A DNA stretch of 64,000 nt, from NCBI GenBank assembly GCA_019239415.1, contig JAFAZW010000062.1:62001-126000 (forward strand), given 5' to 3'. The stretch comes from Alphaproteobacteria bacterium. Lineage in GTDB: Bacteria; Pseudomonadota; Alphaproteobacteria; Sphingomonadales; Sphingomonadaceae. The notes under the pieces were generated by a model. That model was not told the DNA's origin. It ran no database searches and saw only the letters and a program-made list of their open reading frames with translations. Numbering within the stretch: position 1 is the first letter of the stretch; the number at the start of each line of letters is the position of its first letter. Positions 5,210-34,952 of this stretch are shown here, one piece after another. The position numbers were made by a program, and so were the translations under genes.

Positions 5210-5221
5210 GGACGCATTCCT

Positions 5222-6742: not shown

Positions 6743-6769
6743 GGTTCGTCTCCTTCGCGGCCATCGCCG

Positions 6770-11619: not shown

Positions 11620-12038
11620 CAGGCGGCTCCCACCGGAACTCGGGCGGAGACGGCGCCGGCGGCGCCGGTCGCGCGGATTCGGTAGGCGATGGTGACGAGC
11701 AGCTCGCGCGGGTCGTCCCCGGCCTTCACCTCGACCCGGTCGAGCAGGATACGCGGCTCGTAGGTCCTGACGTGCTGGACCAGCGCCTCCTGGGTCCGCG
11801 CCCGCGTCTCGACGGTGTTGGGCTGGTGGATCAGCCGCTCGAGCCCGCCGCCGAAGCCCGGCCGCATCAACTGCTCGCCGGGGCTGGTGCGCAGCACGGT
11901 CTCGATCCGCTGCCGGATCGACGTTTCGAGGTCCGGGAAGAGCAGCCGTCCGTCGGCGTCCGGGACCGGCAGCAGCGGCCAGCAGAGCGGCGGCCGGGCG
12001 GCCGGCGCGCGCGAGGAGGAGAGGACCGGGCCCGCCAT
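11619..12038 (-). CDS. gp25-like baseplate wedge protein
   Basis: A 139-residue member of the gpW/gp25 family (Afp9-like). Visible family features are FPDLETSIRQRIETVL, then TSPGEQLMRPGFGGGL, then HVRTYEPRILLDRVEV and a final beta strand region. These proteins lock the sheath to the baseplate and nucleate its assembly. The size is normal for the family, although the N-terminal 30 residues (Ser/Ala/Pro-rich) extend beyond the usual start. The ATG at 12038 overlaps the upstream stop and the stop overlaps the J gene start. Confidence 0.92.
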   Translation of the reverse strand: MAGPVLSSSRAPAARPPLCWPLLPVPDADGRLLFPDLETSIRQRIETVLRTSPGEQLMRPGFGGGLERLIHQPNTVETRARTQEALVQHVRTYEPRILLDRVEVKAGDDPRELLVTIAYRIRATGAAGAVSARVPVGAA

Positions 12039-13600
12039 CACTTCTTCACCGGAATAGGGATGCAGATCTTGAGCAGGATCATCCACCTCAGCACGAGGTC
12101 GAACAGCCCGAGGAAGATGTTGAGGACGATGAAGGCGCACAGCGTGATGATCGGGATCGAGAAGCTGCACAGCCAGCCGAGCTGCAGCCCCGACGTGTCG
12201 CCGCCGCCGTCCTTGAGCTGCTTCGGGTCCTTGGCGAGCAGATTGGCGAGCGCGGGCGGCATCTCGAAGGCGACGCTCGGCTTGACCTTGCCGATCTGCG
12301 AGAGGTCCGGGAGGGCGATGCGGATCGGCGGGCCGTCGCCGTCCCACCAGGGCAGGATGCGGAAGGGCTCGCTCGCAGGGTCGGACCAGACCAGGGTGTC
12401 CGGGCAGCCGTCGTGGCCGGCGACCCGCACGAAGGCGCGGACCTGGAAGAGGTCGTCGCGGCCATCGAACTTGCCCGGCGCGGCGGTGAGGCGGGCGTGC
12501 TGGTCGGAGAGGCAGGCGAGGGCGGACTCGAACAACCGCGTGCCGGTCGCCTCGTCGACCCGCGGCCAGGACAGCGGCATCAGCACGCCGCCCGCATTGG
12601 GCTGGGCCTCGAGCAGGATCGGCGATGCCTCGCGCACGAAGCGGGCGGCGGTGGTGGCTCGGTTGCCGGGCAGGGGAAGCACGATCCCGTCCAGCAAGTT
12701 CATCAGCTGCCGCGCCGACGGCTTCGCCTCGAGCCCGCCGAGCTCGACGACCACCTGCTGGACGAATTGCGCGACGAGAAAGAGGCGGCCGCGGTCGACG
12801 TCGGTGCTGAACTTCTCGCCCAGCGCGTTGATCGTCGGGTCGAGCGGCGTGCCGGGATAGGGGAGCGAGGCCGCCGGACGCGCGCCGAGATAGGAGGAGA
12901 AATGGGCGGCGAGCTCGGCCCGGTCCTCGTTGGGAAGCGCGGCATAATCGAGCCGCTCGGGCGCGCCGTCGCTGCGCTCGCTGCTCACCACCGGGATGGG
13001 GGCGAAGAGGATCGTGCGGCCGCACGCCTCGCAGACGTCGCGCGGGGCGACGAACAGCGGCAGCACGTCCTCGGCGAGCGGCTGCGTCCGCCGGCGACCG
13101 GCGAGGATCGCGCGCACCGCGGCATTGGCGCCATGCTGGGGCCCGCGGCGGGCCGGGTCGGGATCGTCGCGCTCGGCAGTCGCCTGCCAGCCGGCGATGC
13201 TGCTCCCCGCCTTCATCCAGCCTTGCACCGCGCCGCCCGCAAGCCGCCGCAGCACGAGGCCCCGCGAGGCGATCTTCGCCGGATCGAGGCGCGGACGGCC
13301 GGGCGCGCGGCACGCCGCTTCGAAGAGGGCGATCTGGAATTGCTGGTGGGTCGGCAGACCGAGCTGGAGCGTGTCGGCGCGGTCGCTGCGCCGGCGGCGC
13401 ATCGCCGCGAGACGGGTCCGCCAGTCCGGTGCGCGCAGCGTCTCGAACAGCGCATCGACGAAATTCTGGGCGGTGCTGGTGACGATGATCGTGCGCCCAT
13501 CGCCGCCGCCGAGCGGCCGCAGCACGACGTCGTGCGGCGCCTCGGGCGGCATCATCGCCTCGATCCGGCGCCGCTCGGCGGGGTGGAGGGCGGCGCGCAT
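12038..13600 (-). CDS. eCIS operon protein with hydrophobic, membrane-type C-terminus
   Basis: A 520-residue protein sitting between the spike and gp25 genes and coupled to both by ATGA overlaps. Most of it is soluble and Ala-rich, with a CEACG pair near residue 192 that could bind a metal. The last ~47 residues are strongly hydrophobic (LCSFSIPIITLCAFIVLNI, then FLGLFDLVLRWMILLKI) and end in a basic tail VKK, typical of one or two C-terminal membrane helices. No signal peptide is seen. I do not recognise the family. A membrane anchor inside a baseplate operon suggests docking or release at the inner membrane, as reported for membrane-linked CIS in Streptomyces and cyanobacteria; that link is inference. 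Confidence 0.85.
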   Translation of the reverse strand: MRAALHPAERRRIEAMMPPEAPHDVVLRPLGGGDGRTIIVTSTAQNFVDALFETLRAPDWRTRLAAMRRRRSDRADTLQLGLPTHQQFQIALFEAACRAPGRPRLDPAKIASRGLVLRRLAGGAVQGWMKAGSSIAGWQATAERDDPDPARRGPQHGANAAVRAILAGRRRTQPLAEDVLPLFVAPRDVCEACGRTILFAPIPVVSSERSDGAPERLDYAALPNEDRAELAAHFSSYLGARPAASLPYPGTPLDPTINALGEKFSTDVDRGRLFLVAQFVQQVVVELGGLEAKPSARQLMNLLDGIVLPLPGNRATTAARFVREASPILLEAQPNAGGVLMPLSWPRVDEATGTRLFESALACLSDQHARLTAAPGKFDGRDDLFQVRAFVRVAGHDGCPDTLVWSDPASEPFRILPWWDGDGPPIRIALPDLSQIGKVKPSVAFEMPPALANLLAKDPKQLKDGGGDTSGLQLGWLCSFSIPIITLCAFIVLNIFLGLFDLVLRWMILLKICIPIPVKK

Positions 13601-14289
13601 CACCAGACGTTCCCGGCGCCGGGCGTGTAGCTCGACGAGATGACGCTGTTGGTGATCAAGGTGTCGCACTTCACGATACCGCTGAAGGTCGACATCGCGG
13701 CGCTGACGCTGACCGTGCTGGCGGTGACGCTGACCTGGGAGGCCTGGACGTCGCACTTGCCGGGCGTCTCGATCGAGACCCCGGAGGGGTTCAGCTTCAC
13801 CGTGTTGCCGGCCACCTCGATCTTCATCTCGCCGCCGGACGCGTCGGTCAGCGTCGCCTTGGCGCCGGCCGGAGTCGAAATCTCGACTTTCTCCTGGCCG
13901 TTCGATTCCTCGACGATGGCGATGCGGGTGCCGTTCTTGCCGGTCAGCGACCAGCGGTCCACATGATCGCCGCCGAGCGTCTCGGGAAGCGCGGTCGCGC
14001 CGTTCCACAGGGCGCCGACGACGATCGGCGAGGCGGTGTCGCCGGACGGAAAGGCGACGATCACCTCCTGGCCGACGTCGGGAAGCAGGAAGGCGCCGAA
14101 ATGGTCGCCCGCATAGGGCACCGCCACCCGCGCCCAGATCAGCGCGTCGCCGTCCGGGTCCGGGCCGAGCAGCTGGACCTGGACGCGGCCCTTGGCATCG
14201 GGATCCTGGACCGACTTGACGCGGGCGAGGTGGATGCCTTCCAGCCAGCGCGCCGGGGCGGGGAAGCGGCCGATGGCGTCCGTCATCAT
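13600..14289 (-). CDS. Baseplate spike protein (gpV/gp5-like)
   Basis: A 229-residue spike protein. Residues about 18-95 form an OB-fold: HLARVKSVQDPDAKGRVQVQL, split as HLARVKSV and KGRVQVQLLGP, then WARVAVPYAGDHFGAF, DVGQEVIVAFPSGD and PIVVGALWNG. These are the hallmarks of gpV/gp5 and of the VgrG C-terminal part. From about residue 115 a repetitive region with alternating Val/Ser (VSVTASTVSVSA) should form the triangular beta-helix needle, ending in SYTPGAGNVW. No PAAR gene is seen in this window, so the tip may be formed by this C-terminus. ATG 14289 overlaps the hub gene stop. Confidence 0.9.
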   Translation of the reverse strand: MMTDAIGRFPAPARWLEGIHLARVKSVQDPDAKGRVQVQLLGPDPDGDALIWARVAVPYAGDHFGAFLLPDVGQEVIVAFPSGDTASPIVVGALWNGATALPETLGGDHVDRWSLTGKNGTRIAIVEESNGQEKVEISTPAGAKATLTDASGGEMKIEVAGNTVKLNPSGVSIETPGKCDVQASQVSVTASTVSVSAAMSTFSGIVKCDTLITNSVISSSYTPGAGNVW

Positions 14290-15374
14290 TGGCCGGCCCC
14301 CAGATAGGCCGACTGCGCGTCGAAGTCGGTGAGATAGCCGTCCTTGCGGTCCCAGCGGTGGACGGCGCGGGTGACGGCATATTGGTTGGCGAATTGCGGG
14401 CTCACCGAGGAGAGCTCGATCCAGCTGCCGACGCGCAGGTCGCCATTGCCGATCGCGGTCCCGGTGACGGCGACGAAGGCGCGGGCGCGGCGGTCGGCTT
14501 CGTATTGCGCCCGCTTCTGGGCCTCGGCGTCCGACATCGGGCCGAGCCGCCCGACATGCATCGTCACCTCCGAGAAGCTTTGGGCAAGGACGTCCTTGCC
14601 GGTCTTGCCGCTGCCCGGCCCGAACCCCGCTGCGTCCTTGCTCGCGTCGACCGCGCTGCCCTGCTTCGGGTCCCAGGCGGCGAGGCGGATCTTGCTCACC
14701 TGGTCGGCGATGTCGGCGGTCATGCGCGCATATTTGAGGCCGACGCCCGGGGCGAGGGGGACGAGCGTGCGCCGGTCCTGGCCGATGCGGCCGACCTGCA
14801 GCTTGACGCCGACTACCTGCATGTCGGCGTCGGATGTGGCGAGGATGCGCCGCAGGAAGGCGAGGTCGGTCTCGTCGGTCTGCAGCCAGGTCCGCGCCGT
14901 CGTGTCGATGCCGTCGCGGACTTCCGGCGTGAGGCCGTAGTCGGACGCGACCTGCCGGATCACGTCCTCGAGGCTCTTGTCCTCGAAAACGCGCGTCCGC
15001 CGCTTGCGGCGCGCCGGGAACAGCCGATCCTCGGCAAGGATGGTGAAGAGCGGGGCGCCGGCGTCCCGCACCTCGGCTTCGATGCCGGTCACCTGGCCGT
15101 CGAATATCTCCTTGGCGTCGACCTCGGCCGAGCCGGCGAAGACCCGCACGCCCGCGCCGAGCTTCAGCGGCGAGGAAGCGCCCGAGGCGAAATCGGCGCT
15201 GCCGTCGTCGCGGGTCACGGCGTCGGTCAGCACGAGCTCGAGGCTGGAGAGGCCGCCCAGTGCCTCGCTCATCCGCATCCGCTCGAGGTTGCGCGCGACG
15301 ACGGGATAGCTCTGGCCGTCGATCTCGATCATCGGCGAGGTGCTGAGCAGCTTGGGGGGGTCGGCGAGGGCCAT
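14286..15374 (-). CDS. Baseplate hub protein (gpD/gp27-like)
   Basis: A 362-residue protein of the phage late control D/gp27 type, corresponding to the N-terminal part of VgrG or Afp8. Features are the N-terminal beta domain (MIEIDGQSYPVVARNLERM, then LELVLTD), FDGQVTGIEAEVRD, and the typical VIRQVASDYGLTPEV followed by WLQTDETDLAFLRRIL. It sits directly before the spike gene, so hub and spike are separate polypeptides. ATG 15374 overlaps the stop of the small 59-aa gene (TGATG). It forms the trimeric hub joining tube and spike. Confidence 0.9.
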   Translation of the reverse strand: MALADPPKLLSTSPMIEIDGQSYPVVARNLERMRMSEALGGLSSLELVLTDAVTRDDGSADFASGASSPLKLGAGVRVFAGSAEVDAKEIFDGQVTGIEAEVRDAGAPLFTILAEDRLFPARRKRRTRVFEDKSLEDVIRQVASDYGLTPEVRDGIDTTARTWLQTDETDLAFLRRILATSDADMQVVGVKLQVGRIGQDRRTLVPLAPGVGLKYARMTADIADQVSKIRLAAWDPKQGSAVDASKDAAGFGPGSGKTGKDVLAQSFSEVTMHVGRLGPMSDAEAQKRAQYEADRRARAFVAVTGTAIGNGDLRVGSWIELSSVSPQFANQYAVTRAVHRWDRKDGYLTDFDAQSAYLGAGQ

Positions 15375-15553
15375 CAGTCGGCGAACAGCCTGGCGCGGCG
15401 CTGCAGGGCGCGGCGGATCTGATAGTCGAGCTTGTCGAGATCGGGCTCGGCGCCGCCGCCCGCGCCGCCCCCGCCGCTGCCGCCGCCGCTGCCGCGCGAG
15501 GCCTGGGCCTCGGGAGCGACTTCGCTGCTGATCTCGTCGATGACGACCGCCAT
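15374..15553 (-). CDS. Small eCIS protein (59 aa), DUF5908/Afp6-like by position
   Basis: A 59-residue frame with ATG 15553 and a good ribosome-binding site (GGAGGG 8 bp upstream). The N-terminus MAVVIDEISSEV and the C-terminal helix LDYQIRRALQRRARLFAD flank a Gly/Ser/Ala-rich linker. Small proteins of this size lie beside the LysM/tube-cap gene in most eCIS clusters (Afp6/DUF5908 group), and the position here fits. I am not certain of real sequence similarity. Its stop overlaps the hub start (TGATG), which supports that it is translated. Confidence 0.78.
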   Translation of the reverse strand: MAVVIDEISSEVAPEAQASRGSGGGSGGGGAGGGAEPDLDKLDYQIRRALQRRARLFAD

Positions 15554-15565
15554 TTTCCCTCCCTC

Positions 15566-16900
15566 CTAGAAAAACGTCACGCCGCCGGCGGCCCAACTGG
15601 CGGCTACCTGCCCGTCCGCGGAGACGATGCGGCCGGTCTCGTCGAAGCGCGTTTCAATGCCGACGGCGGGACGCGGCGGCGGCAGCAGCCGCGCCGGGTC
15701 GAAGGCCGCCGACGGCAGCACCGTCTTCGACGCGCCGAGCCCCGCGAACGCCCCCGCGCTCGCCGCGACGCCGGCGCTGGCACGTCCGGAATCGACCGCG
15801 ACGATCGTCACCGAGGCGGTGCCGCCCGCCGGGCTTCGGGCAACCATCGCCGCGTTCGCGACGGCCGAGGCGCCGATGCTGGCGCCGGCGGCGGCGCGGA
15901 AGCCGGCCGCCGCCGACGCGCCGAATCCCGCACCGGCCGATGCGCCGAAAGCGGCGCCCGCCGAGGCGCCAAAGCCTGCGCCGGCCGAGGCTCCGAAAGC
16001 GGCGCCCGCCGATGCGCCGAATCCTGCGCCGGCGGACATGCCGATGCCGACGCTGGCCGAGAGCCCCGCCGCGGCGCTGGCGCCGATGCTGGCGCCGGCG
16101 CCGAATCCGATCGAGACGCCCGCGGAAATGCCGATCCCCGCGCTGACGCCGCCGCTGACCTGGAAGCTCGCGGCGGCGGAGAGGTTGATCGAAGCCGACG
16201 CGTCCAGTTCCGCGCCGGCGGGCGCGCGCATGTTCTCGAGGCCGTTGCTGGCGGCGAGGTAGCGGCCGGCGTCGGGGTCGCCCGCTTCGCTTGCCGCGCC
16301 GGTGGCGCCGGCGCCGTCCGGTGGCGCCGTGACGGCGGTGGACTGGGGCGGCGCCGGCGCCGGATCGGGTTTCTTGTAGCGCTGCGCGCCGGACGCGTAG
16401 GTGGCGTGCTCGCCGCCCGCGCCCTTCATCGCGATCTGCAGCGACGCGCGCAGCGGCACGCCGTCGGAGGACCAGTAATCGAGCGTCTCGGTCAGCGTCT
16501 CGATGATGCCGGTATAGCTCGACGTGCCCCAGAAGAAGCTCACCTTGGAGACGCTGCAATTGGGCTCCTTCTGCGCGCCGCCGCCGCTCTTGCCGCCCGT
16601 GCTCTGCTGCTTGGCGGTGGCGGTGGCGATGGTGAGGTCGTGGAGCTTCTGGGTCTTCTGACGGACGTCGTCGCCGGTCTCGGTCGTGTCGAAGACGAGC
16701 TCGACGTCGAGCTTCGCGCTGGTCGCGCGGGCATGCTGCTCGGGCGGGTCTTCGCCGAACTGGTTCGACAGCGTGATGCGGAGCGACGCCGGGTTGAAGT
16801 CCACCGCGATCTTGTCGCCCTTGCCGCCGGCGAGCTGGAAATAGGCGCGGCCTGGGGGCGGATCGCCGGCCGGCGGGGCGGGGGGCGGCGGCGCGGTCAT
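15566..16900 (-). CDS. Afp7-like tube-cap protein with LysM remnant and octapeptide repeat
   Basis: A 444-residue protein. Residues about 18-160 match the CIS_tube domain of Afp7/Pvc7-type proteins: KIAVDFNPASLRITLSNQ, LDVELVFDTTETGDDVRQKT, VSFFWGTSSYTGIIETL and GVPLRASLQIAMKG. This protein links tube to hub. Family members normally end in a LysM domain. Here residues 208-235 (AGRYLAASNGLENMRAPAGAEL) look like only the second half of a LysM. They are followed by a Gly/Ala/Ser repeat region (252-350) with strict eight-residue spacing of Phe (294, 302, 310, 318, 326, 334). ATG 16900 overlaps the upstream stop. Confidence 0.88.
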   Translation of the reverse strand: MTAPPPPAPPAGDPPPGRAYFQLAGGKGDKIAVDFNPASLRITLSNQFGEDPPEQHARATSAKLDVELVFDTTETGDDVRQKTQKLHDLTIATATAKQQSTGGKSGGGAQKEPNCSVSKVSFFWGTSSYTGIIETLTETLDYWSSDGVPLRASLQIAMKGAGGEHATYASGAQRYKKPDPAPAPPQSTAVTAPPDGAGATGAASEAGDPDAGRYLAASNGLENMRAPAGAELDASASINLSAAASFQVSGGVSAGIGISAGVSIGFGAGASIGASAAAGLSASVGIGMSAGAGFGASAGAAFGASAGAGFGASAGAAFGASAGAGFGASAAAGFRAAAGASIGASAVANAAMVARSPAGGTASVTIVAVDSGRASAGVAASAGAFAGLGASKTVLPSAAFDPARLLPPPRPAVGIETRFDETGRIVSADGQVAASWAAGGVTFF

Positions 16901-17445
16901 CCCGCCGCTCCGACGAGATCGAGGCCTTCGTGGACGAGGTGGATCTCCTCGACCGCGACCTCGCCGCCCTTGGCGTTGAGGTCGCCGATGCGGAACTTGA
17001 CCGGCATGGCGTTGCGCAGCCGCCAGGCGACGGCGGCGGTTCGCGCCTTCGCCGGCGACGGGTCGATCAGGGCGATGACGAGGTTGCACCGGTTCGCGGG
17101 CGTCGGCAGCCCGTCGCTCTTCCCGTCGGCGCCCGCGAACAGGGACCACCAGGCCCAGAGCGGCTGCGCGCGGACGATGCCGCGCTTGAGGATCACGGTA
17201 CCGAAGGTCACCGGGCCCGCCCGCAGCTGCGGGCCGTAATTGCGCCCGCCGACCTTGATGACCTTATGCTCCATCATTGCCTCGAGCCCCGAGACGTCGG
17301 AAAAGCCGCCGACGATACCGGGATCGACCGATCCGAACGGCCCGAAGCCCCCGCCCCCCGCCTCGAAGGCGACGTGGAAGGCGAAGCTCCCATAGGGAGT
17401 CTCGATCGTCTCGCCGGAGGGGATCGGGTAGCCGCCGTCGGGCAT
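16897..17445 (-). CDS. Tail tube protein 2 (gp19/Afp5-like)
   Basis: A 182-residue inner-tube protein. It has the usual tube pattern: YGSFAFHVAFE near the N-terminus, GGFSDVSGLEAMMEHKVI, TFGTVILKRGIVRAQPLWAW, CNLVIALID, RLRNAMPVKFRIGDLNAKGGEVAVEEIHLVHEGL. It is longer than tube 1 through an N-terminal extension (residues 1-15) and a Gly/Phe-rich loop. The start ATG 17445 overlaps the sheath 2 stop. In Afp-type particles a second tube protein of this kind adapts the tube to the hub; that specific role is inferred. Confidence 0.92.
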   Translation of the reverse strand: MPDGGYPIPSGETIETPYGSFAFHVAFEAGGGGFGPFGSVDPGIVGGFSDVSGLEAMMEHKVIKVGGRNYGPQLRAGPVTFGTVILKRGIVRAQPLWAWWSLFAGADGKSDGLPTPANRCNLVIALIDPSPAKARTAAVAWRLRNAMPVKFRIGDLNAKGGEVAVEEIHLVHEGLDLVGAAG

Positions 17446-19091
17446 CAGGCCGCCTCCCGCACGGCGGCGCCGCCGGCCGGTTCGAGCAGCAACAGGCTCA
17501 CCTCGACATGCTCGATCGGATAGGCGGCGGTGAATTCGACCCGGCAGATGACGCGGCCGTTGTCGATGTCGGCCTGGGTCATCACCGTCTCGTCGCAGCG
17601 CACCGAATAGCCGGGGCCGGCGGCGGAGACATCGAGGGCGCCGCGGGCGGCGAGGCGGGCGAGGAACCCCTCCATCGCCGCCCGGACCCGTGCCCACAGC
17701 AGCGGGCCGGACGGCTCGAAGACCAGCTCGTCGCCGAGCTGGCGCGCGGCGCGCAGCACGGTATCCATCAGCCGCGAGACGCCGCCCGCGCGCCATTTGC
17801 GCTCCTCCGCCATCGTCGCGTCGCTGACCAGGCCGATGCGGCCGCGGCGCGTGGCGATCAGGCAGAGGCGCTCGCCGAGCCAGTCGGCATAGGGGGCGAA
17901 GCCGCGGGCGATGTCGCTCTCGGCGAGATCGGGCTGGATGCGGCGGGCGCTGCGCAGCGGCTGGCCGGCGGCGCTGCGGAAGGCGCCGTCGGCGAGGGCA
18001 CGGGACGCGATGAGTCCGGCGAGCATCCCTTCGGGACTCTGGAGACCTTCGGGGAGAATGGCGGACGCCGCCGTCTCGACCCACGGATAGGCGAGCTGCA
18101 GGCGCGCGCTGCCGATCGCGGCATCGCCGAGCAGCGGCGTCTTGGGTCCGCCGAGACCGGGTCGCGCCAGGATCGCCAGCGGCCAATTCTCCTCGGCGGC
18201 GGTAAATCCGCCGTCGTCGAGTGGGAGCGGCAGCGCCGAGACCAGCATGACGTCGCGGCGGTGGGCGGGGCCCTTCGGCCGCCCGAGCAGGTCGAGCGCG
18301 TGGCGCAGCGCCGCGCCCCACAAGGCGTAGCCGTCGGCGTCCAGGCGCGGCGCCAGATAGTCCGGCCGCGCCGGCCGTGGCTCCGGCTCCGGCGGCGGCA
18401 CCGGCCGCGCGCAGGGCAGGAAGTCCTCGGGCGGCCCCGGCGGCTCCTCGAGAGGCGGCGCCGGTCGCGGCGCGCCGGCGGCGATGTCGGGAAGGTCCGG
18501 AAGGAGCAGCATCGCCGCGTCGTCGACCGCATAGACGGCGGCGGCGCCGGTCCACGTCGCGGGATCTCCCGGATCGGCCGCGTCGCCGCGCCCCTGGAAG
18601 CCGGGCAGGATCGGGACCCGCGGACCGTCCTCGGGCGGGGCGGCGGCGGGCCAGGACAGGAGCGCGCGGCTCGCCGCGGCCGCTGCCGCCGCGGTGGCGC
18701 CGACGAGCGCAAGCGGGTCGCCGGTCCGCACGACATAGGCCTTGGCGCCGCCTTCCTCGAAGAAGCTCTTTACGGCGAGGCCGAGCGCAGTCGGCAGCCG
18801 TTCGGCGGAGCCGGCCGCGGCCGGCCGCTCGTCCCAGGCGTAGAGCGCGTCGAAGGCGGACCAACTCGTCACCGGCACCGGCACGCCGAGGAGCGAGTCG
18901 AGCCGCGCTTCTGGCGTGGCGAAGAGGCCGTTGGGGCTCCACCCTCCGGCGATGAGCGTCTCCCGCACCGGCGCCGGCAGCGGCGCGGCGCGGCGGCCGA
19001 CGCAGCCGACGAACATCGCCACGTCGGCGCGCGTGCCGAGCGCCGCCGCATGCGGCTGCCGGGTGGTGAAGGTGACGCCGGGGACGAACAT
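17445..19091 (-). CDS. Tail sheath protein 2
   Basis: A 548-residue contractile-sheath subunit. The N-terminus PGVTFTTRQP and ADVAMFVGCVGRR resemble sheath starts. The C-terminal ~150 residues have the conserved sheath core: RLMDTVLRAARQLGDELVFEPSGPLLWARVRAAMEGFLARL (in pieces), then CDETVMTQADIDNGRVICRVEFTAAYPIEHVEVSLLL, which supplies the strand exchanged between subunits. The middle is divergent and Pro-rich. It is followed by its own tube gene with an ATGA overlap, matching the two sheath-tube pairs of the operon. It may form the baseplate-proximal sheath ring. Confidence 0.9.
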   Translation of the reverse strand: MFVPGVTFTTRQPHAAALGTRADVAMFVGCVGRRAAPLPAPVRETLIAGGWSPNGLFATPEARLDSLLGVPVPVTSWSAFDALYAWDERPAAAGSAERLPTALGLAVKSFFEEGGAKAYVVRTGDPLALVGATAAAAAAASRALLSWPAAAPPEDGPRVPILPGFQGRGDAADPGDPATWTGAAAVYAVDDAAMLLLPDLPDIAAGAPRPAPPLEEPPGPPEDFLPCARPVPPPEPEPRPARPDYLAPRLDADGYALWGAALRHALDLLGRPKGPAHRRDVMLVSALPLPLDDGGFTAAEENWPLAILARPGLGGPKTPLLGDAAIGSARLQLAYPWVETAASAILPEGLQSPEGMLAGLIASRALADGAFRSAAGQPLRSARRIQPDLAESDIARGFAPYADWLGERLCLIATRRGRIGLVSDATMAEERKWRAGGVSRLMDTVLRAARQLGDELVFEPSGPLLWARVRAAMEGFLARLAARGALDVSAAGPGYSVRCDETVMTQADIDNGRVICRVEFTAAYPIEHVEVSLLLLEPAGGAAVREAA

Positions 19092-19095
19092 CGGC

Positions 19096-19551
19096 TCAGG
19101 CCGGATCGCCGAACTCGAAGCCTTCGGCGGCGATGACGAGCTCCTCCATCGCCACGTCGGAGCCGCCCTTCGCGGCGAGGGTGGGGCCGGTCCACTTCAT
19201 CGGCCGCGCGTTGCGCAGCAGCCAGCGCATCACCGGATTGCGCTGCTCGTCCTGCAGCGTGATGACGACGGTGCGGGTAAGAGTCGGATCGGTGCGGGTC
19301 GCCGAGATCCATTCCCAGAAGTTGCGCTGGCCCATGATGCCGCGCTTCAGCGTCACGTCGCCGGCCTTGTGCATGCCGGGGATCTTGCGGACGTGGTTCT
19401 CCTTGTCGTTGCCCTGGCGGTATTCCATCAGCGTGATCTCGGTGCCGATCCCCGAGACGTCGGAGAAGCCGCCGAGGGCGGAGGTGGCCGGGTCGTTGCC
19501 GTCGAACTCGACGATGAAGTTATAGGCGCCGTACGGCGTGTCGCGTGGCAT
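19096..19551 (-). CDS. Tail tube protein 1 (gp19/Afp1-like)
   Basis: A 151-residue canonical inner-tube subunit: MPRDTPYGAYNFIVEFDG, GGFSDVSGIGTEITLMEYRQGN, VRKIPGMHKAGDVTLKRGIM, FWEWI, RTVVITLQDEQ and a final AMEELVIAAEGFEFG. Length and spacing are typical of TIGR02241/gp19 proteins. It sits between the two sheath genes, with a ribosome-binding site (AGGGAGTG) 15 bp after sheath 1. It should be the most abundant tube protein of the particle. Confidence 0.95.
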   Translation of the reverse strand: MPRDTPYGAYNFIVEFDGNDPATSALGGFSDVSGIGTEITLMEYRQGNDKENHVRKIPGMHKAGDVTLKRGIMGQRNFWEWISATRTDPTLTRTVVITLQDEQRNPVMRWLLRNARPMKWTGPTLAAKGGSDVAMEELVIAAEGFEFGDPA

Positions 19552-19565
19552 GGTGCTTCACTCCC

Positions 19566-21254
19566 TCATGAGCGCGCGTCGGCGGTCTTCTGGCCGATGC
19601 GGAAGATGACGAATTCGGCGGGTTTCAGCGCGGCGACGCCGACGAGGCAGATGAGGCGGCCGTTATCGAGGTCGTTCTGGGTCATCGTCGTGCGGTCGCA
19701 GCGCACGAAGAACGCCTCCTTGGGCGTGCCGCCGAGCAGGGCGCCGCTCACCCACTCGTTGTAGAGGAAGTCGGAGACGGTGGTGCGGACGTTCGCCCAC
19801 AGCGCCTCGCCGTTCGGCTCGAACACCGCCCACTGCGTGCCGCGGTCGATCGACGCCTCGAGATAGAGGAAGTAGCGGCGGATGTTGACGTACTTCCACT
19901 CCGGGTCGGAGCTGATCGTGCGGGCGCCCCAGACGCGGATGCCGCGATTGGGGAGGGCGCGGATGCAGTTGATGCCGAGCGGGTTCAGCACCTCCTGCTC
20001 GCCGAAGCGCACGTCGCGCTGCAGGGCGAGGGCGCCGGTGACGGTCTCGTTGGCCGGCGCCTTCCAGACCCCGCGCTGGACGTCGGTGCGGGCATAGATG
20101 CCGCAGACGGCGCCCGACGGCGGGACGTCCACCGTGCCCGGCAGCGTCGCGTCGACCGCCGCCGCCGGATTGGCGATGGTGATCCACGGATAGTAGAGCG
20201 CGGCATATTTGCTGTCGATCTTGCTCTTGAGCGCGCGGACGCCGGCGATGTCGGCGTTGGGCGGCGGGTCGAGCACGGCGATGCGGTAGGCCCGGCGCGC
20301 TTCGGCATGGCCGATCAGCGCCTGGTTGACGGCGGCGGCGACCGTGTCGCCGAAGGTCGACGCGCCGGGCGCGGCGACGATCGAGACGTCCTCGAGCGCG
20401 AGCAGCGAATCGAGAGCGGCCTGGTAATCGGCGGTCGACGGCGCCGCGCCGTCGCTGCCGCCGGTCAGCGTGATCGTGCGGACATTCTGGTCGTTGGCTC
20501 CATTCATGAGGGCCGCGGCGACGTCGGCGGCGCTCGCACTGGCCCCGATATCGATCGCCACCGGGTTGGTCAGGGCGTCGCCGGCCACGGGCGGCTTCGC
20601 GCCCATCACGGTCGCGATGTAGCGCGGGTGCTTCGGGTGGATGCCGAGCCCGCCGGCCTCGTAGACCGGCCCGGTCGAGTCCTCGACGAGGACGTTGTAG
20701 GTGAGGATCGCGCCGGCGGTGTCGTCGGCTGCGATCGTGTCGACGCCGACCACCGAGACGGCGTTGCCGACTTGGATCGCCGTGCCGGCCGGCTGCCTGA
20801 GCGCCAGCGCCTGCGTCGTCGCATGGGCGGACTGGCTGATCGTCACGCGATAGGCCGAGCCGTTGGCCGAGCGCGCCGACAACGTCACCTTCTTGGCGGC
20901 GGCCGGGCTCCCCGAATTGAGGACGACGGGCGTGGGCGCCGCGGCGCCGGCGCCGAGGATGCGCGCGACGTAGAGGCGGCCGCCGCCATTGTTGAAGAAG
21001 GCCTGGGCGGCGAGCGCGACGTAGTTGGTCGCCCGCGCGGTTCCGGCCGTCAGATCGTCCACCCCGCCATAATAACGCTCGAAGTCGCGGAAGCTGGTGA
21101 GGAGCGGCGGGGTCGGGTCGCTCGGCGTTACCGACACGGGGCCGCGCGCCGTCATGCCGACGAAGGCGGCGGTGCTGGTGCCGACGCCCTCGATCGACTT
21201 CGCGCGGAAGCTCGTCTCCTCGACGAAGACCGCGGGGGCGAGATATTCAGGCAT
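19566..21254 (-). CDS. Tail sheath protein 1
   Basis: A 562-residue main sheath protein. It begins MPEYLAPAVFVEETSFRAKSIEGVGTS, split as MPEYLAPAVFVEE and SIEGVGTSTAAFVG, which is the classical start of Afp/Pvc sheath proteins. It continues with PPLLTSFRDFERYYGG and AAQAFFNNGGGRLYVARI. The C-terminus has GINCIRALPNRGIRVWGART, RYFLYLEASIDRGTQWAVFEPN and CDRTTMTQNDLDNGRLICLVGVAALKPAEFVIFRIGQ (in parts). The large insertion at residues 130-300 should form the outer surface domain. ATG 21254 lies inside the stop of the preceding 20-codon frame. Confidence 0.96.
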   Translation of the reverse strand: MPEYLAPAVFVEETSFRAKSIEGVGTSTAAFVGMTARGPVSVTPSDPTPPLLTSFRDFERYYGGVDDLTAGTARATNYVALAAQAFFNNGGGRLYVARILGAGAAAPTPVVLNSGSPAAAKKVTLSARSANGSAYRVTISQSAHATTQALALRQPAGTAIQVGNAVSVVGVDTIAADDTAGAILTYNVLVEDSTGPVYEAGGLGIHPKHPRYIATVMGAKPPVAGDALTNPVAIDIGASASAADVAAALMNGANDQNVRTITLTGGSDGAAPSTADYQAALDSLLALEDVSIVAAPGASTFGDTVAAAVNQALIGHAEARRAYRIAVLDPPPNADIAGVRALKSKIDSKYAALYYPWITIANPAAAVDATLPGTVDVPPSGAVCGIYARTDVQRGVWKAPANETVTGALALQRDVRFGEQEVLNPLGINCIRALPNRGIRVWGARTISSDPEWKYVNIRRYFLYLEASIDRGTQWAVFEPNGEALWANVRTTVSDFLYNEWVSGALLGGTPKEAFFVRCDRTTMTQNDLDNGRLICLVGVAALKPAEFVIFRIGQKTADARS

Positions 21255-21309
21255 AGAAGGTCTCCCAGGTTCGGCGGCGCGGCGGCCGCCCGCGAGCGTT
21301 CAGGATCAT
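21247..21309 (-). CDS. Twenty-residue peptide coupled between two eCIS genes
   Basis: A frame of 20 codons plus stop. Its ATG (21309) overlaps the stop of the 269-aa gene (ATGA) and its TGA (21247-21249) lies just inside the start of sheath 1. It starts MILNARG, has a proline/arginine stretch and ends WETFYA. The exact coupling at both ends looks deliberate. It could be a leader that lets ribosomes reach the sheath start, or a real small protein with arginine-rich character. No Shine-Dalgarno of its own is apparent. Coding status is uncertain. Confidence 0.5.
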   Translation of the reverse strand: MILNARGRPPRRRTWETFYA

Positions 21310-22115
21310 GCGGGACTCCAGGCGATGGCGAGCGCGCGGCGGGCACCGGCCGCGAGGGTGACGGCTGTGCCGGCGGCAAAGGCGGCCGGCGCGGCACCGG
21401 CGAAGGCGTCGGGATCGGGATGCCCGGCGGTGCGCGCCGCGGCGGCATCCTGGGCGGCGGCGATGTCCGCCGGGGCATGGAAGAGTGCCGTGGAAGGATC
21501 GACGGCGACGGTCGCCCGGGCGTCGCAGACGGGCTGCACGCCGCCGCCCGACTTCGCGAAGGCGAGGGGAAGGCCGGTGAACACCAGGCACGCCTCGCCG
21601 CGCGCATCGGTGAGCGCGCGGGCGGCGAAGGCGCCATTGTCGCTGCGGCCCCGCACGAGCGCGTGCTCGATCAGCCGCCCGTCGTCGGCGCGGCGGACCG
21701 TCACCCGGACCGAGCAGCCGCCGGGGGGCGCTTCCGCCGATGCTCCCGGCAGGAGCTCGACGGGAACCGGCAGGAACACGGAGTCGGCCGCGTCGCGGCG
21801 CGTCGGGTCGGGATCGCGCGGGAGCGGGAGGACGAAGCTGCGCGGCGCGACGTCGGACGACGCCGGCGTTACGTCGAGCCGGAGCTTGACCGTGCCGGGA
21901 GCGGGGCTGCCCGGTGCGGCATCGAACGCTGCGGTGTAGGCCTCCAGGTCCCGAGCCGAGAGCAAGGCATAGTCGCCGGCCGACTTGGCGACGAGGCGCA
22001 CCGCGGCGCCCTCGATGCGCAGCGGCGCGCGCACCGGCGCCCCGGCGACGTCGACGAAGCGGAGCAGCGCCAGCGCCCGCCGGTCGAGCAGGTCCGGGGC
22101 CAGCATCGCGGTCAC
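21306..22115 (-). CDS. eCIS operon protein of unknown function (269 aa)
   Basis: A 269-residue protein with ATG 22115 overlapping the DUF4255 gene stop. The first 120 residues contain beta-strand-like segments (LLRFVDVAGAPVRAPLRIEG, VKLRLDVTPA, SFVLPLPRDPDP). Residues about 120-190 (CSVRVTVRRADDGRLIEHALVRG ... ALTDARGEACLVFTGLPL) read like a carboxypeptidase-regulatory/Ig-type sandwich. The C-terminus is Ala-rich and helical (DIAAAQDAAAARTAGH). No signal peptide is present. Similar beta-sandwich proteins are found next to sheath genes in some eCIS clusters. I cannot name the family. Confidence 0.78.
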   Translation of the reverse strand: MTAMLAPDLLDRRALALLRFVDVAGAPVRAPLRIEGAAVRLVAKSAGDYALLSARDLEAYTAAFDAAPGSPAPGTVKLRLDVTPASSDVAPRSFVLPLPRDPDPTRRDAADSVFLPVPVELLPGASAEAPPGGCSVRVTVRRADDGRLIEHALVRGRSDNGAFAARALTDARGEACLVFTGLPLAFAKSGGGVQPVCDARATVAVDPSTALFHAPADIAAAQDAAAARTAGHPDPDAFAGAAPAAFAAGTAVTLAAGARRALAIAWSPA

Positions 22116-22720
22116 AGCGCCGGCTCCGCGGCAGGGTCGCCATGCGCGAAGGCGAAGCGGCTCGCGACCACCGGAGGCCCGTCCGCCACGTCCCCATAGC
22201 CGATGCGAACGATCCGCGCCTTGAACAGGGCGCTCAGGCGCAGCCGCTGCTTCAGCGCATCCCAGATGCGGAAGATCCGCTCGGGGTCCGGGTCCTCGGG
22301 CACGATCTGGATGGTCTCGCCGCGCGCCCAGCCGGCGCCCTGGAGCTGGCCGGCGGCAAGCACCGGGTAGCGATCGAGCTCGAGCATCGCCCAGCTGAGC
22401 AGCGCCTGCTCCTCCTCGGAGACCGACGACCAGCTCACCATCAGATAGGAGAGTTCGAGCGAGATGCCGATCCCGCGCGCCGGATCCTCCATCGCGCGCC
22501 GCCCGAGCGGGTGATCCGAGCGTGCGACATGATAGCAGCTGATCGAGAGGCCGGACGATGGCGGGGAGGCGCCGGCGATGGCGGCGAGCGTCAGGTGCTT
22601 GATGTCCTGGGAAGCGGGGACCGGGGCCAGGCGGCCTTCGCTCGCCAGCAGCTCCCGCCGGGCGCGCAGCAGCGCCGCGACCGACTCGCCGACGAGGTTG
22701 ACGGCGCCGAGCTCAGCCAC
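22112..22720 (-). CDS. DUF4255/Pvc16-type protein (tail terminator candidate)
   Basis: A 202-residue protein read from GTG 22720, which overlaps the upstream stop. An upstream in-frame ATG at 22798 would lie inside the previous gene. Pattern of the Pvc16 N-terminal family (DUF4255): VGESVAALLRARRELL, then ISCYHVARSDHPLG, GIGISLELSYLMVSWS, EEQALLSWAMLELDRYPVL, and a C-terminal IWDALKQRLRLSALFKARIVRI. Afp16/Pvc16 proteins cap the tube and set its length, and this gene is placed first among the recognisable structural genes as in Afp-like clusters of this type. Both ends overlap neighbours. Confidence 0.87.
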   Translation of the reverse strand: MAELGAVNLVGESVAALLRARRELLASEGRLAPVPASQDIKHLTLAAIAGASPPSSGLSISCYHVARSDHPLGRRAMEDPARGIGISLELSYLMVSWSSVSEEEQALLSWAMLELDRYPVLAAGQLQGAGWARGETIQIVPEDPDPERIFRIWDALKQRLRLSALFKARIVRIGYGDVADGPPVVASRFAFAHGDPAAEPAL

Positions 22721-23000
22721 GGCCCTTCGCCTCGATCTCCCCGGCGAGGCCGCCCTCGGCAATCGCGCCGAAGCGCGTTTCGTAGAGATCCACCGCACAG
22801 CCGATTCGCTGGCGCATGCCGGCGAGATAGTCGGGGCTGGTGACGAAGCGGCCCTTGACGTCCGGCTCCGCGGCGCCCGCCGCCACCTGCCCGACGTCGA
22901 TGCGGACTTCCGACAGGGTCACTTCGAGCCGCATATGGTTGATGAAGACGCGGGCGCCGTCGTTGCCGCTGCCGGCGCTCTCATCCGCTGCCTCCCCCAT
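22713..23000 (-). CDS. First gene of the eCIS operon, unknown function (95 aa)
   Basis: A 95-residue acidic protein. I start it at ATG 23000, which has GGGAGA 5 bp upstream. A longer frame could begin at GTG 23042, but the expected start of transcription from the sigma-54 promoter (about 23032) lies downstream of that codon. The sequence (INHMRLEVTLSEVRIDVGQV, then FVTSPDYLAGMRQRIGCAVD) has no motif I recognise. It overlaps the DUF4255 gene by 8 bp. Position suggests an assembly or chaperone role, but nothing in the sequence proves it. Confidence 0.75.
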   Translation of the reverse strand: MGEAADESAGSGNDGARVFINHMRLEVTLSEVRIDVGQVAAGAAEPDVKGRFVTSPDYLAGMRQRIGCAVDLYETRFGAIAEGGLAGEIEAKGRG

Positions 23001-23043
23001 GCCGGTCTCCCGCGGCGCGCCGCGCACGCCGCCAGGACGCACC

Positions 23044-23059
23044 GCAAGCGGCGTGCCAA
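23044..23059 (-). promoter_or_regulatory. Sigma-54 (-24/-12) promoter of the eCIS operon
   Basis: On the minus strand the sequence is TTGGCACGCCGCTTGC. It has GG and GC separated by exactly ten bases and matches the RpoN consensus TGGCAC-N5-TTGC at every conserved position. Transcription should start near 23032, leaving a leader of about 32 bases before ATG 23000. A sigma-54 activator gene lies immediately upstream in the same direction. Confidence 0.88.
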
Positions 23060-23121
23060 TCAGCGGATGACAAGCGTTTCAGGGACTTGCGGCGGGATCG
23101 CCCGCGGGAAGGCGTCGCGGC

Positions 23122-23164
23122 TGAGACGCCGGGGCGTCACAGGCCCGCACCAGGCCGTTACAGG
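23122..23164. promoter_or_regulatory. Candidate activator (enhancer) sites
   Basis: The gap between the EBP stop and the -24/-12 promoter holds a near-perfect palindrome at 23122-23141 (TGAGACGCC-GG-GGCGTCACA, one mismatched pair). It also holds two direct repeats on the minus strand, CCTGTAACG (23156-23164) and CCTGTGACG (23135-23143), spaced 21 bp, which is two helical turns. They lie about 90-130 bp upstream of the expected transcription start, the normal distance for sigma-54 activators. Binding by the neighbouring EBP is inference. Confidence 0.5.
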
Positions 23165-24481
23165 TCAATCCGCGCGGGGCGCGCCGTCCGTGTCGAGGCC
23201 CACGCGATCGAGCCGCCGGTAGAACGTCATGCGCGAGCATTTGAGCGCTCGCGCCGCCTCCGCTTTGCTGCCGTCGGCGCGGGCGAGCGCCCGCAGCAGC
23301 ACCGCGCGTTCGCGTTCCCGGGCATCGTCGCCCGTTGGCGCCGACGCGACGATCGCCGGCAGGTCGAGCGGGTCGAGCAGGCCCGGGCGCTCGGCCGTGA
23401 CGAGCGCGTGCTCCAGGGCGTTGCGCATCTCGCGGACGTTGCCCGGCCAGTCGTGTCGTCCCAACGCATCGAGGAACGCCGTGGGGACGATCGGGGACGG
23501 CAGGCGCAGGTCGTCGCAGATGCGCTCGACGAGGCAGCGGGCGATCGGCGCGATGTCTTCGCGCCGCTCCCTGAGCGGCGGGATGACGAGTTGGATCACC
23601 GCCAGGCGGTAGAACAGGTCGGCCCGGAAGGCGCCGCGGGCGACCTCCTCGGCGAGGTCGCGGTTGGTCGCGGCGAGAATGCGCACGTCGGCGCGCTGCG
23701 GCCGTGCCGCGCCGATCGGGAAGACCTCGCCCGATTCGATCGTCCGCAGCAATTTGGCCTGGGCGGCGAGGCTGAGCTCGCCCACTTCGTCGAGGAACAA
23801 CGTGCCCCCGTCGGCCAGGCGGAACTTGCCCGGATAGGAACGCGACGCGCTGGAGAAGGAACCCTTCTCATATCCGAACAGCTCGCCCTCGATCAGCGTT
23901 TCGGGAATCGCCGCGCAGTTGATCGGCACCAGCGGTCCCGCCGCGCGGGCACTGGCGCGGTGCAGCATCAGCGCGACCAGCTCCTTGCCCGTCCCGGTCT
24001 CGCCGCGGATCAACGTCGTGCTGCCGGACCGCGCGAGCCGACGCACGAGCGCCTTGATTCCCTTCACCGCGCGGCTGGTGCCGACGAATCCGCAATCGTC
24101 GGTCGCGGCCGCGGCGGTGCGGGCGAGGTGCCGGCGCAGGCGCTCGGCCGCAGCGTCGGCGTCGCCGCTGAGCCGCAGGAAATCGTCGGCACCGGCGCGG
24201 ATCGCGGCGAGCGCGGCCTCTTCGCCGCCGTCGCCGGCACAGGCGAGCAGCGCGGCATCGGGAAAGGCCGCGCGCAGCCGCGTGAGCGCGCGCGGCACCG
24301 CACCCGCGGCGACGAGCACCGCTGCGGCGCCGTCTGCGCCGGCTTCCTCCACGGCGAAGAACGGCGCGCCGACTCGCGCGGCGAGCGCACGCGCCTTTGC
24401 TTCGGTCTCGCGCGGAAGCTCCGCAAACGCGACTGCGCCTTTTCGATCGAGCCCCATCCCCACGTCATCCCGCAATGACAT
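23165..24481 (-). CDS. Sigma-54-dependent activator (EBP) with altered GAFTGA loop
   Basis: A 438-residue regulator from ATG 24481; TTG 24526 and ATG 24457 are alternative starts. Residues ~15-120 look like a receiver fold without the phospho-acceptor Asp (ALLACAGDGGEEAALAAIRAGADDF keeps only the C-terminal half). The AAA+ domain has Walker A GETGTGKE (160-167), Walker B GGTLFLDEVGE (225-235) and arginine finger FRADLFYRL (285-293). The sigma-54 contact loop is GSFSSA (207-212) in place of GAFTGA. The C-terminus is a Fis-type HTH (KAEAARALKCSRMTFYRRL). It precedes the eCIS operon in the same orientation and probably controls it. Confidence 0.9.
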   Translation of the reverse strand: MSLRDDVGMGLDRKGAVAFAELPRETEAKARALAARVGAPFFAVEEAGADGAAAVLVAAGAVPRALTRLRAAFPDAALLACAGDGGEEAALAAIRAGADDFLRLSGDADAAAERLRRHLARTAAAATDDCGFVGTSRAVKGIKALVRRLARSGSTTLIRGETGTGKELVALMLHRASARAAGPLVPINCAAIPETLIEGELFGYEKGSFSSASRSYPGKFRLADGGTLFLDEVGELSLAAQAKLLRTIESGEVFPIGAARPQRADVRILAATNRDLAEEVARGAFRADLFYRLAVIQLVIPPLRERREDIAPIARCLVERICDDLRLPSPIVPTAFLDALGRHDWPGNVREMRNALEHALVTAERPGLLDPLDLPAIVASAPTGDDARERERAVLLRALARADGSKAEAARALKCSRMTFYRRLDRVGLDTDGAPRAD

Positions 24482-25109
24482 CAGCAACTTGGCTGGTGCA
24501 GGGCCAGGGAGAGGCGCCGCTGCCAATGGAGAATCGTCGCTTCGGACCCCACGATTTCCGCAAGTGCCGATTGTCTCCGCCGACAGATGCTATTGCAAAA
24601 GATCGCAGAGTCAATGTCGCAACCGTTAGGTCTATGAAATAACGTCCGCCGTTGCTGCGGCCACGTTACCAAGGTGATTGCCGCATTAACCGAATTCGAC
24701 TGGCTGGGCGTGACGCGGCTGCGCCGCCAATCAGCGATGCCGCCGTCGCGCGACATGGTTGTTCTACGCGATTGGCGCCTAGGGGCGGGTCGGCCGCGCT
24801 CGTTTCGGCGCGTGATCTCATTGGATTCGAAGGACAAGTTTTCGGCTCGGCACGTGTCCGCAAGAGGGGAAGGCACTTTTCTGTGGAAAACCGCGCGGCC
24901 TCCCATCAACCCCTTGAGCTGCAATCAGTTTCCTGCGGTACCTGTGTCCTCGGGGTGACACTGCGGCCGCGAGGCGCAGCACGACCGATTTTCCCGTTGC
25001 CGATGGACTCGAAGTTTGATTCATTCCTGAATGGGGAGCGGGGATTTGGTTAAGCGGTTGGTAACCGTCTGATTCCTATGATCTCTGCCGGGGTGTGAGG
25101 AGTGGGATC
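24482..25109. other. Intergenic region, about 630 bp
   Basis: No convincing gene. GC content is visibly lower than on both sides. Open frames on both strands lack the third-position GC bias of the neighbours. It must contain the promoter of the EBP gene (leftward) and of the 182-aa gene (rightward), but I could not identify clear -35/-10 elements. Confidence 0.5.
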
Positions 25110-33349: not shown

Positions 33350-33699
33350 ACGCCGGTACGTCCGCACAACCTTCCACGGACGCTTATTGACTTTGCTCCG
33401 CTACTGGGAAAGAAGTGACCCCACGAGCGGCGCCATATGCCGGCCGGAACGGTGTCGCGGCGCTAGATCGCGGCATCGGGCGAGTTAACTGTTCGGGGGG
33501 CCTCCTGGCCCCGTCCGCCCTCGCCCAAAAGTGACCGAGCGTGCGCGATCTGCGCAACGTGTCCGGGACCGTTTCCGAAACTTGCTCTAAATTCCTGGAG
33601 AGCTGGCGCGTGGGCGCCGGCCGCCTGAAGGAAGCCCCAATACCAACCGCACCCCGCCACTGAACCGGCGGGGTTTTTTGCGTCCGAAGGAGAAGCCCC
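33350..33699. other. Non-coding gap after the integrase, 350 bp
   Basis: No convincing gene. It holds a strong terminator (33652-33679) that does not directly follow the integrase, so a short RNA starting within this gap, or a long integrase 3' UTR, is possible. It ends with AGAAGCCCC before the AlpA-like gene. Confidence 0.5.
33652..33679 (+). terminator. Intrinsic terminator
   Basis: Seven-pair stem CCCCGCC / GGCGGGG with an 8-base loop, directly followed by six T residues. It faces the plus strand, 300 bp after the integrase stop and 20 bp before the next gene. Confidence 0.88.
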
Positions 33700-33873
33700 A
33701 TGAACGTGCCTATCACCTGCTCCGTTCAAGACGCGACGAAGCTCAGCGGGCTCAGTCGCTCGTATCTCTATGAGCTGATCGCCGCCGATCGCATCATTAC
33801 GAAGAAGCTCGGCCGGCGTCGGCTGGTCCTCGTCTCCAGCCTCCGGGATTTCCTGGAACACGGCGGCCAGTGA
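33700..33873 (+). CDS. AlpA/MerR-like helix-turn-helix protein (57 aa)
   Basis: A 57-residue protein with a winged-helix pattern typical of excisionase or AlpA-type regulators: CSVQDATKLSGLSRSYLYEL, IAADRIITKKLGRRRLVLVSS, LRDFLEH. ATG 33700 has GAAGGAGAAG 6 bp upstream. In phage and satellite elements this class controls excision or early genes. It is followed one base after its stop by the next gene (GTG 33875). Confidence 0.85.
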   Translation: MNVPITCSVQDATKLSGLSRSYLYELIAADRIITKKLGRRRLVLVSSLRDFLEHGGQ

Positions 33874-33874
33874 A

Positions 33875-34893: not shown

Positions 34894-34952
34894 CGTCAGA
34901 GCGACCGCCGGGCCGGCAGCGGCCGGGCCGCGCCAGCCGAAGGGAGGACCGC

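What the first reader, a model, noticed from the sequence alone, without database searches (positions are those of the whole stretch)
23044..23164. Contractile injection system under sigma-54 control with its own activator
A complete -24/-12 promoter (TTGGCACGCCGCTTGC) sits 44 bp ahead of the first eCIS gene, and an EBP gene ends about 105 bp upstream of it. A palindrome and two 21-bp-spaced direct repeats lie between them. This gives a self-contained regulatory switch for the whole 23-kb operon. Sigma-54 control is well known for type VI secretion, less so for eCIS.
Basis: partly seen in the sequence, partly recalled or inferred. Interest (0 to 1): 0.72.

Follow-up and report, generated by a model that had tools for sequence, protein, structure and literature searches.

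The report
Sigma-54 switch for injection-machine operon
A Sphingomonas-like bacterium appears to turn on a phage-tail-like injection machine through its own dedicated sigma-54 activator, and the same control cassette sits in front of a quite different peptidase operon in relatives.

Summary
Confirmed as sequence, and strongly supported as a promoter by conservation; there are no expression data. TTGGCAC-N5-TTGC lies at 23044-23059 (-), 43 bp before the ATG of the first operon gene and 106 bp after an enhancer-binding protein (EBP) gene. The operon encodes an extracellular contractile injection system (eCIS). All 9 loci with the order EBP-DUF3467-Pvc16 have a -24/-12 element there (8 exact, 1 with one change), against 1 of 38 Pvc16 loci without an EBP. 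TGTnAC/GTnACA half-sites are enriched upstream, and recur in three loci examined afterwards. The window's 21-bp repeats are two of these; its palindrome is not conserved. The loop is GSFSSA/GAFSSA/GAFSGA, not GAFTGA, in these nine EBPs. The receiver domain is degenerate or gone. EBP, boxes, promoter and a DUF3467 leader gene also precede a non-eCIS papain-like-peptidase operon in three relatives, so the cassette is portable. Sigma-54 control is known for type VI secretion; I saw no report of it for eCIS, but most eCIS papers listed were not opened. Not shown: RpoN dependence, DNA binding, the inducing signal, and the role of DUF3467.

The parts
23165..24526 (-). EBP gene (453 aa; TTG start uncertain, ATG possible at 24481): AAA+ sigma-54 interaction domain, loop GSFSSA, Fis-type HTH, N terminus without a recognisable receiver
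24587..24614 (-). weak sigma-70-like promoter (TTGACT-16-TAGCAT) that may drive the EBP gene
   Evidence: 1 found, 0.1 expected
23157..23162 (-). half-site TGTAAC, -104 from the T of TGGCAC
23136..23141 (-). half-site TGTGAC, -83
23111..23130 (.). palindrome GGCGTC-N8-GACGCC; not conserved as such; overlaps GTCTCA (23122-23127), perhaps a degenerate half-site at the place of the relatives' -69 box
   Evidence: the overlap is read by eye
23044..23059 (-). -24/-12 (sigma-54) promoter TTGGCACGCCGCTTGC
22713..23000 (-). first operon gene, DUF3467-like, 95 aa (Pfam match below the curated cut-off)
22112..22720 (-). Pvc16_N protein
21306..22115 (-). 269-aa protein of unknown family, conserved in related eCIS loci
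19566..21254 (-). sheath
19096..19551 (-). tube (gp19-like)
17445..19091 (-). second sheath-like protein (C-terminal domain match just below the cut-off)
15566..17149 (-). CIS_tube protein
14286..15596 (-). baseplate hub (Phage_GPD)
13600..14289 (-). spike/OB domain (Phage_base_V)
11619..13313 (-). protein with gp25 baseplate wedge domain
9421..11619 (-). baseplate J / TIGR02243
6770..9544 (-). Tail_P2_I protein with a CIS12 match below that model's cut-off
5222..6118 (-). protein with a partial CIS13 match below cut-off
3080..5209 (-). second protein with a partial CIS13 match below cut-off

Best explanation
A dedicated EBP, made from its own (probably housekeeping) promoter, binds TGTnAC/GTnACA half-sites about 50-115 bp upstream of a -24/-12 promoter and uses ATP to open RpoN-RNA polymerase there, switching on the eCIS operon that begins with the DUF3467 gene. 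Shown by sequence: gene order, promoter, boxes, their conservation, RpoN in the genome, co-occurrence. Inferred: RpoN dependence, binding of this EBP to these boxes, transcription of the whole operon from this start. The receiver domain is missing or poorly conserved, and six EBPs carry Ser at the second Gly of the sigma-54 loop (in NorR that change gave activity without the signal, PMC2941729). I therefore infer that activity is set by EBP amount or by a partner, with DUF3467 a candidate, and not by phosphorylation.
For: -24/-12 element in 9 of 9 EBP-DUF3467 eCIS loci, 1 of 38 Pvc16 loci without EBP. In the 9-way alignment of the intergenic region the two longest runs of invariant columns are TGGCA and TTGC of the element. 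Half-sites: 50 in 10 loci against a shuffle mean of 3.9 (maximum 13 of 1000) and 1.6 in random segments (maximum 14 of 1000); in three loci examined after the motif was set, 4, 6 and 3. RpoN encoded. The four best matches of the EBP among 298 family genomes are the four with an EBP-type eCIS. Of 48 loci, EBP in 10 and DUF3467 in 9, the 9 inside the 10. A DUF3467 search in 204 genomes found 7, of which 6 lie beside an EBP with element and boxes. L073, from another family of the class, has a GAFTGA EBP and TGGCATGAGTCTTGC upstream of its sheath gene.
Against: No expression or binding data. The loop is GSFSSA, which is not among the variants listed as active in PMC4641369; PMC3162934 says single changes in the motif mostly abolish activity, and loss of the motif makes some relatives sigma-70 regulators (also PMC12421884). 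The window has only two exact half-sites. The half-site motif was picked by eye, so the test is post hoc apart from the three later loci. The 9 eCIS loci are related and L030-L032 are near copies. L060 has the element but no EBP in the stretch fetched and none of this type in its genome.
Confidence: 0.86

Rival explanations
1. The EBP relative no longer contacts sigma-54 because of its altered loop, and regulates the operon at a sigma-70 promoter, as TyrR, HupR or Caulobacter NtrC do; the -24/-12 match is a remnant.
For: Loop GSFSSA in the window and GAFSSA in five relatives. EBP relatives with a defective motif working with sigma-70 are on record, and single changes in it mostly abolish activity (PMC3162934, PMC12421884, passages).
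Against: The element is kept in 9 of 9 loci while the sequence around it diverges. GAFSGA, GAFSEA and GSFTGA are listed as variants expected to stay active (PMC4641369, passages), and NorR with Ser at the second Gly still activates (PMC2941729, passages). No sigma-70-like site was found between EBP and first gene.
Confidence: 0.07
2. The element is real, but another EBP of the cell drives it, or it drives only the DUF3467 leader gene while the structural genes have their own promoters.
For: L060 has the element and no dedicated EBP. One sigma-70-like site lies at 20190-20218 inside the operon (0.4 expected). Two gaps of about 290 bp exist.
Against: EBP and element co-occur tightly. No terminator-like site was found at 3100-22980.
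Confidence: 0.05
3. The match is a chance hit in a GC-rich genome.
For: Four exact matches in the genome against 1 for the control pattern.
Against: Present at the same place in 9 of 9 loci; background about 8e-4 per 200-bp stretch on one strand, counted over coding and non-coding DNA, three of the eight background hits having been fetched for matching.
Confidence: 0.01

Closest known systems
Sigma-54/EBP-controlled type VI secretion clusters (Bernard et al. 2011, seen only as a reference-list entry; PMC3804575 and PMC10482370, search listing only)
   Same: A contractile injection machine whose genes are under RpoN and, by the title of Bernard et al., cognate EBPs.
   Different: Here an eCIS, a different machine; EBP with altered loop and degenerate or lost receiver; DUF3467 leader gene; cassette also found before a peptidase operon.
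eCIS regulators on record: GerE/LuxR-type next to 25.8% of loci, RfaH, BTAD (PMC8213781, passages)
   Same: A regulator gene adjacent to an eCIS operon.
   Different: None of these is an EBP; the words sigma and enhancer do not occur in that main text. LuxR-type regulators do sit beside other eCIS loci of the same family (L061, L066; named by eye).
EBPs without an N-terminal signal domain, such as PspF and four D. vulgaris EBPs (PMC4641369, passages)
   Same: AAA+ and HTH only (L029-L032); a partner protein or a cascade is thought to control them.
   Different: Linked to eCIS and DUF3467; GAFSSA loop; TGTnAC boxes.

Membership tests
sigma-54 (-24/-12) promoter | GG-N10-GC core with TGGCAC-N5-TTGC flanks | tested here: met
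sigma-54 (-24/-12) promoter | conserved in orthologous intergenic regions | tested here: met
sigma-54 (-24/-12) promoter | RpoN in the genome | tested here: met
sigma-54 (-24/-12) promoter | transcript start about 12 bp downstream; RpoN dependence | not testable with these tools
   needs RNA work
bacterial enhancer-binding protein | sigma-54 interaction AAA+ domain and Fis-type HTH | tested here: met
bacterial enhancer-binding protein | GAFTGA sigma-54 contact loop | tested here: inconclusive
   GSFSSA in the window; GAFSSA in 5 and GAFSGA in 3 eCIS relatives, GAFTGA in L073
bacterial enhancer-binding protein | upstream binding boxes | tested here: inconclusive
   half-sites enriched and recurrent; binding not shown
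NtrC-type response regulator | phosphorylatable receiver domain | tested here: not met
   window EBP: no Response_reg match even at E 5; phospho-acceptor, Thr/Ser and Lys positions not kept (alignment partly uncertain)
eCIS | sheath, tube, CIS_tube, hub, spike, gp25, J, Tail_P2_I, Pvc16 | tested here: met
eCIS | AAA+ ATPase (Afp15/Pvc15 type) | tested here: inconclusive
   none among the window and adjoining ORFs scanned; not every ORF was scanned

The most novel reading that the evidence does not exclude
EBP, TGTnAC boxes, -24/-12 promoter and a DUF3467 leader gene form a portable control cassette in which DUF3467 is the EBP's partner (sensor or feedback anti-activator), replacing phosphorylation after the receiver domain decayed; unrelated operons (an eCIS, a papain-like-peptidase cluster) have been placed under it.
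Probability: 0.33. Interest if true: 0.66.

Novelty: new variant of a known kind. Interest (0 to 1): 0.52.

Why it matters
How eCIS particles are switched on is largely open; the survey seen here calls the signals 'yet unknown' (PMC8213781, passage). A conserved sigma-54 start with a dedicated activator gives a directly testable on-switch, with named Sphingomonas isolates that carry it. If RpoN dependence holds, it adds a second class of contractile machine to the RpoN regulon. The shared cassette also points to a role for DUF3467, which Pfam describes as a protein of unknown function.

Tried and rejected
The other exact TGGCAC-N5-TTGC sites of the genome were looked at for a wider regulon: two lie inside ORFs; one is intergenic before a methyltransferase/TolC-like pair (named by eye), with no EBP in the 9-kb stretch and one half-site in 190 bp; I do not link it. 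A leader hairpin suggested by the alignment was folded in 8 loci: only 1 of 8 was clearly below its shuffles (z -3.2), one was above them (z +1.9); dropped. The DUF3467 protein was modelled: mean pLDDT 53.5, too low for a fold search, which was not run; no solved relative at E 1. A search around the L073 genome found no other held genome in its order. The palindrome as a conserved operator is rejected.

Limits of the counts. Genomes were even draws of larger groups and the draws overlap. In one search at most five first-look candidates were scored per genome, so the ranking could have missed a match; one search scored all candidates in 8 genomes and agrees. The half-site count lets TGTnACA count twice, in data and controls alike. 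The DUF3467 and EBP profiles were built from these same loci, so the presences are by construction and the absences are the result. The window's own DUF3467 match is below the Pfam cut-off (22 against 25 bits). In the EBP tree L011, L014 and L122 were dropped because my motif filter did not match them; support for the nine-member eCIS clade is 92/89, below the tool's starred level, and L073 is a long branch. One search leaves out L073 beforehand, because its EBP lies upstream of the sheath and not of Pvc16. Among the 38, L071, L074 and L093 showed no sheath or tube match and L096 a tube match only, so not all are proven eCIS; L074 has only about 485 bp upstream of the Pvc16 match.

Changes made on re-checking: the third non-eCIS operon (G030) has a C92, not C70, papain-like domain; its EBP had already been listed; confidence in the best explanation lowered by 0.01 and the sigma-70 rival raised by 0.01 because the loop papers speak more against the loop than I had first written.

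Full report
What is there. On the minus strand the order is: EBP gene (23165-24526), a 164-bp gap, then a 95-aa gene with a weak DUF3467 match (22713-23000), Pvc16 (22112-22720), a 269-aa gene, sheath, tube, second sheath-like protein, CIS_tube, hub, spike, gp25, J, a Tail_P2_I/CIS12-like gene and two genes with partial CIS13 matches. This is an eCIS. A 1485-aa ORF starts at window 3059 and runs past the window's left edge, followed on the same strand by ORFs of 494 and 3551 aa, the last with a MafB19-like deaminase match; that these belong to the operon is inferred. An AAA+ ATPase of the Pvc15 type was not seen among the ORFs scanned. The genome is an unnamed 3.49-Mb draft in 103 contigs; the nearest named loci found are from Sphingomonas.

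The element. TTGGCACGCCGCTTGC at 23044-23059 is 106 bp after the EBP stop and 43 bp before the ATG. RpoN is encoded elsewhere in the genome. One exact match is weak evidence on its own: 4 in the genome against 1 for the control pattern.

Conservation. I collected Pvc16-anchored loci from draws of 298 family, 396 order, 385 class, 398 phylum and 5 genus genomes and from one named-genome scan: 48 loci with the window. EBPs were sought by profile in all six frames of the stretches fetched: 10 of 48. Nine share EBP-DUF3467-Pvc16 (window, L024, L025, L026, L029, L030, L031, L032, L058). The tenth, L073, from another family of the class, has an EBP before its sheath gene and no DUF3467. In the nine, TGGCA[C/T]-N5-TTGC lies 296-360 bp upstream of Pvc16 and 30-80 bp before the likely start of the DUF3467 gene. 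Of 38 loci without an EBP, one (L060) has it within 1 kb. Eight of the nine are exact; L058 has TGGCAT. In the alignment of the nine intergenic regions the two longest runs of invariant columns are the two halves of the element. L073 has TGGCATGAGTCTTGC between EBP and sheath. G191 (L023) and G957 (L081) have related sheath and tube genes (66/76% and 53/60% identity) but lack EBP, DUF3467 and element, as expected if the three travel as a unit.

Boxes. In the 190 bp before the element, ten loci (the nine and L073) hold 50 TGTnAC/GTnACA half-sites against a shuffle mean of 3.9 (maximum 13 of 1000) and 1.6 in random segments of the same loci (maximum 14 of 1000). The motif was picked by eye from these sequences, so this is post hoc; three loci examined later, L128, L129 and L134, hold 4, 6 and 3. 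Recurrent positions are about -104, -93, -83, -69 and -61; L073 is an outlier at -133 and -110. A TGTnAC-N18-GTnACA pair recurs at -85 to -93 in six loci (L025, L026, L030, L031, L032, L058; three of them near copies). L029 has TGTCAC-N6-GTGACA.

The activator. P0001 has the sigma-54 AAA+ domain and a Fis-type HTH. Its loop reads GSFSSA; L029-L032 and L058 read GAFSSA, L024-L026 GAFSGA, L073 GAFTGA. A Response_reg match, weak or strong, appears only in L024 (E 2e-4), L025 (0.04), L026 (0.002) and L073 (2e-9), and in none of the window, L029-L032 and L058 at E 5. So Gly at the second loop glycine goes with a remaining receiver (4 of 4) and Ser with its absence (6 of 6): a small sample of related proteins. 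In the alignment with receivers of other EBPs, L024-L026 and L073 do not keep the aspartate, Thr/Ser and Lys positions (alignment partly uncertain). In NorR, Ser at this glycine gave activity without the signal, still partly regulated (PMC2941729, passages). GAFSGA, GSFTGA and similar variants are listed as expected to remain active, GAFSSA and GSFSSA are not in that list (PMC4641369, passages), and single changes in the motif are said mostly to abolish activity (PMC3162934, passages). In a tree of 35 EBPs the nine eCIS EBPs group together (92/89), with L073 and two others (L103, L104) next (98/97 for all twelve).

The cassette elsewhere. L103 and L104 lie in L128 (G260) and L129 (G066). There the EBP is followed by TGTnAC boxes, TGGCACGGGGCTTGC or TGGCACGCATCCTGC, a DUF3467 gene and a papain-like Peptidase_C70 protein, then further genes including a subtilase (profile in L128; homologue in L129). 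A search by the DUF3467 model in 204 family genomes gave 7 hits; 6 lie beside an EBP with element and boxes. Five of the six were known to me; the sixth, G030 (L134, L141), had appeared only as an EBP row. Its next gene shares 42% over 192 residues with the C70 protein of L128 and carries a papain-like C92 domain. The seventh (G012, L137) has no EBP or element. No sheath or tube match was found in L128, L129, L132, L133, L134 or L141. Together, 12 of 12 EBP-DUF3467 pairs seen have the element between them: 10 exact, L058 and L129 with one change each.

Specificity. Among 298 family genomes the four best matches of P0001 (945, 320, 295, 288 bits) are the four genomes whose eCIS has the EBP; the next is 262 (at most five candidates scored per genome). 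EBPs of some kind match in 293 of 298, so this depends on rank, not presence.

Mechanism and what is not shown. The anatomy is that of an EBP acting from upstream boxes on RpoN polymerase. RpoN dependence, binding, transcript start and operon length are untested. A weak sigma-70-like site precedes the EBP. The input signal is unknown; DUF3467 as partner is an inference from linkage.

Literature. Passages of PMC8213781 name GerE, RfaH and BTAD as eCIS regulators; 'sigma' and 'enhancer' do not occur in its main text. Searches for contractile injection with sigma-54, RpoN, enhancer-binding protein or regulation listed type VI secretion papers, unrelated papers and eCIS papers on Streptomyces and Photorhabdus. 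Searches showed 20 of 219 and 15 of 199. Apart from PMC8213781 I opened none of those eCIS papers. The one apparent lead, PMC10599522, has the phrase only in its reference list. Chen et al. 2019 was not held and no preprints are held, so absence from print is not proven. The one paper listed for DUF3467 (listing only) is on chlorhexidine and Porphyromonas.

Noticed in passing
L033:684-11339 (-), G000:C65, left of the window: A 3551-aa ORF on the operon's strand with a MafB19-like deaminase match near its C terminus, possibly a cargo or polymorphic toxin at the operon's 3' end.
   Followed up: partly
L128, L129, L132, L133, L141: A cluster with papain-like peptidase (C70 or C92), in two of three genomes also a subtilase and several mutually similar ~400-aa proteins, under the same EBP/DUF3467 cassette; function unknown.
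   Followed up: partly
L023:10508-10864, L027:7982-8500, L067:7438-8094: eCIS loci without the EBP carry a receiver-like ORF directly before Pvc16 (judged by eye), perhaps another control protein.
   Followed up: no
L060, oriented coordinate 7091: A good -24/-12 element upstream of an eCIS with no dedicated EBP in the stretch fetched or, in the genome.
   Followed up: partly
window 32195-40208 (+): Integrase, HTH, major capsid and CHAP-domain matches: a likely prophage or phage-like element some 8 kb from the EBP gene.
   Followed up: no
window 23001-23043 (-) and relatives: GC-rich inverted repeat in the leader between promoter and DUF3467 start; folding support weak (1 of 8 loci).
   Followed up: yes
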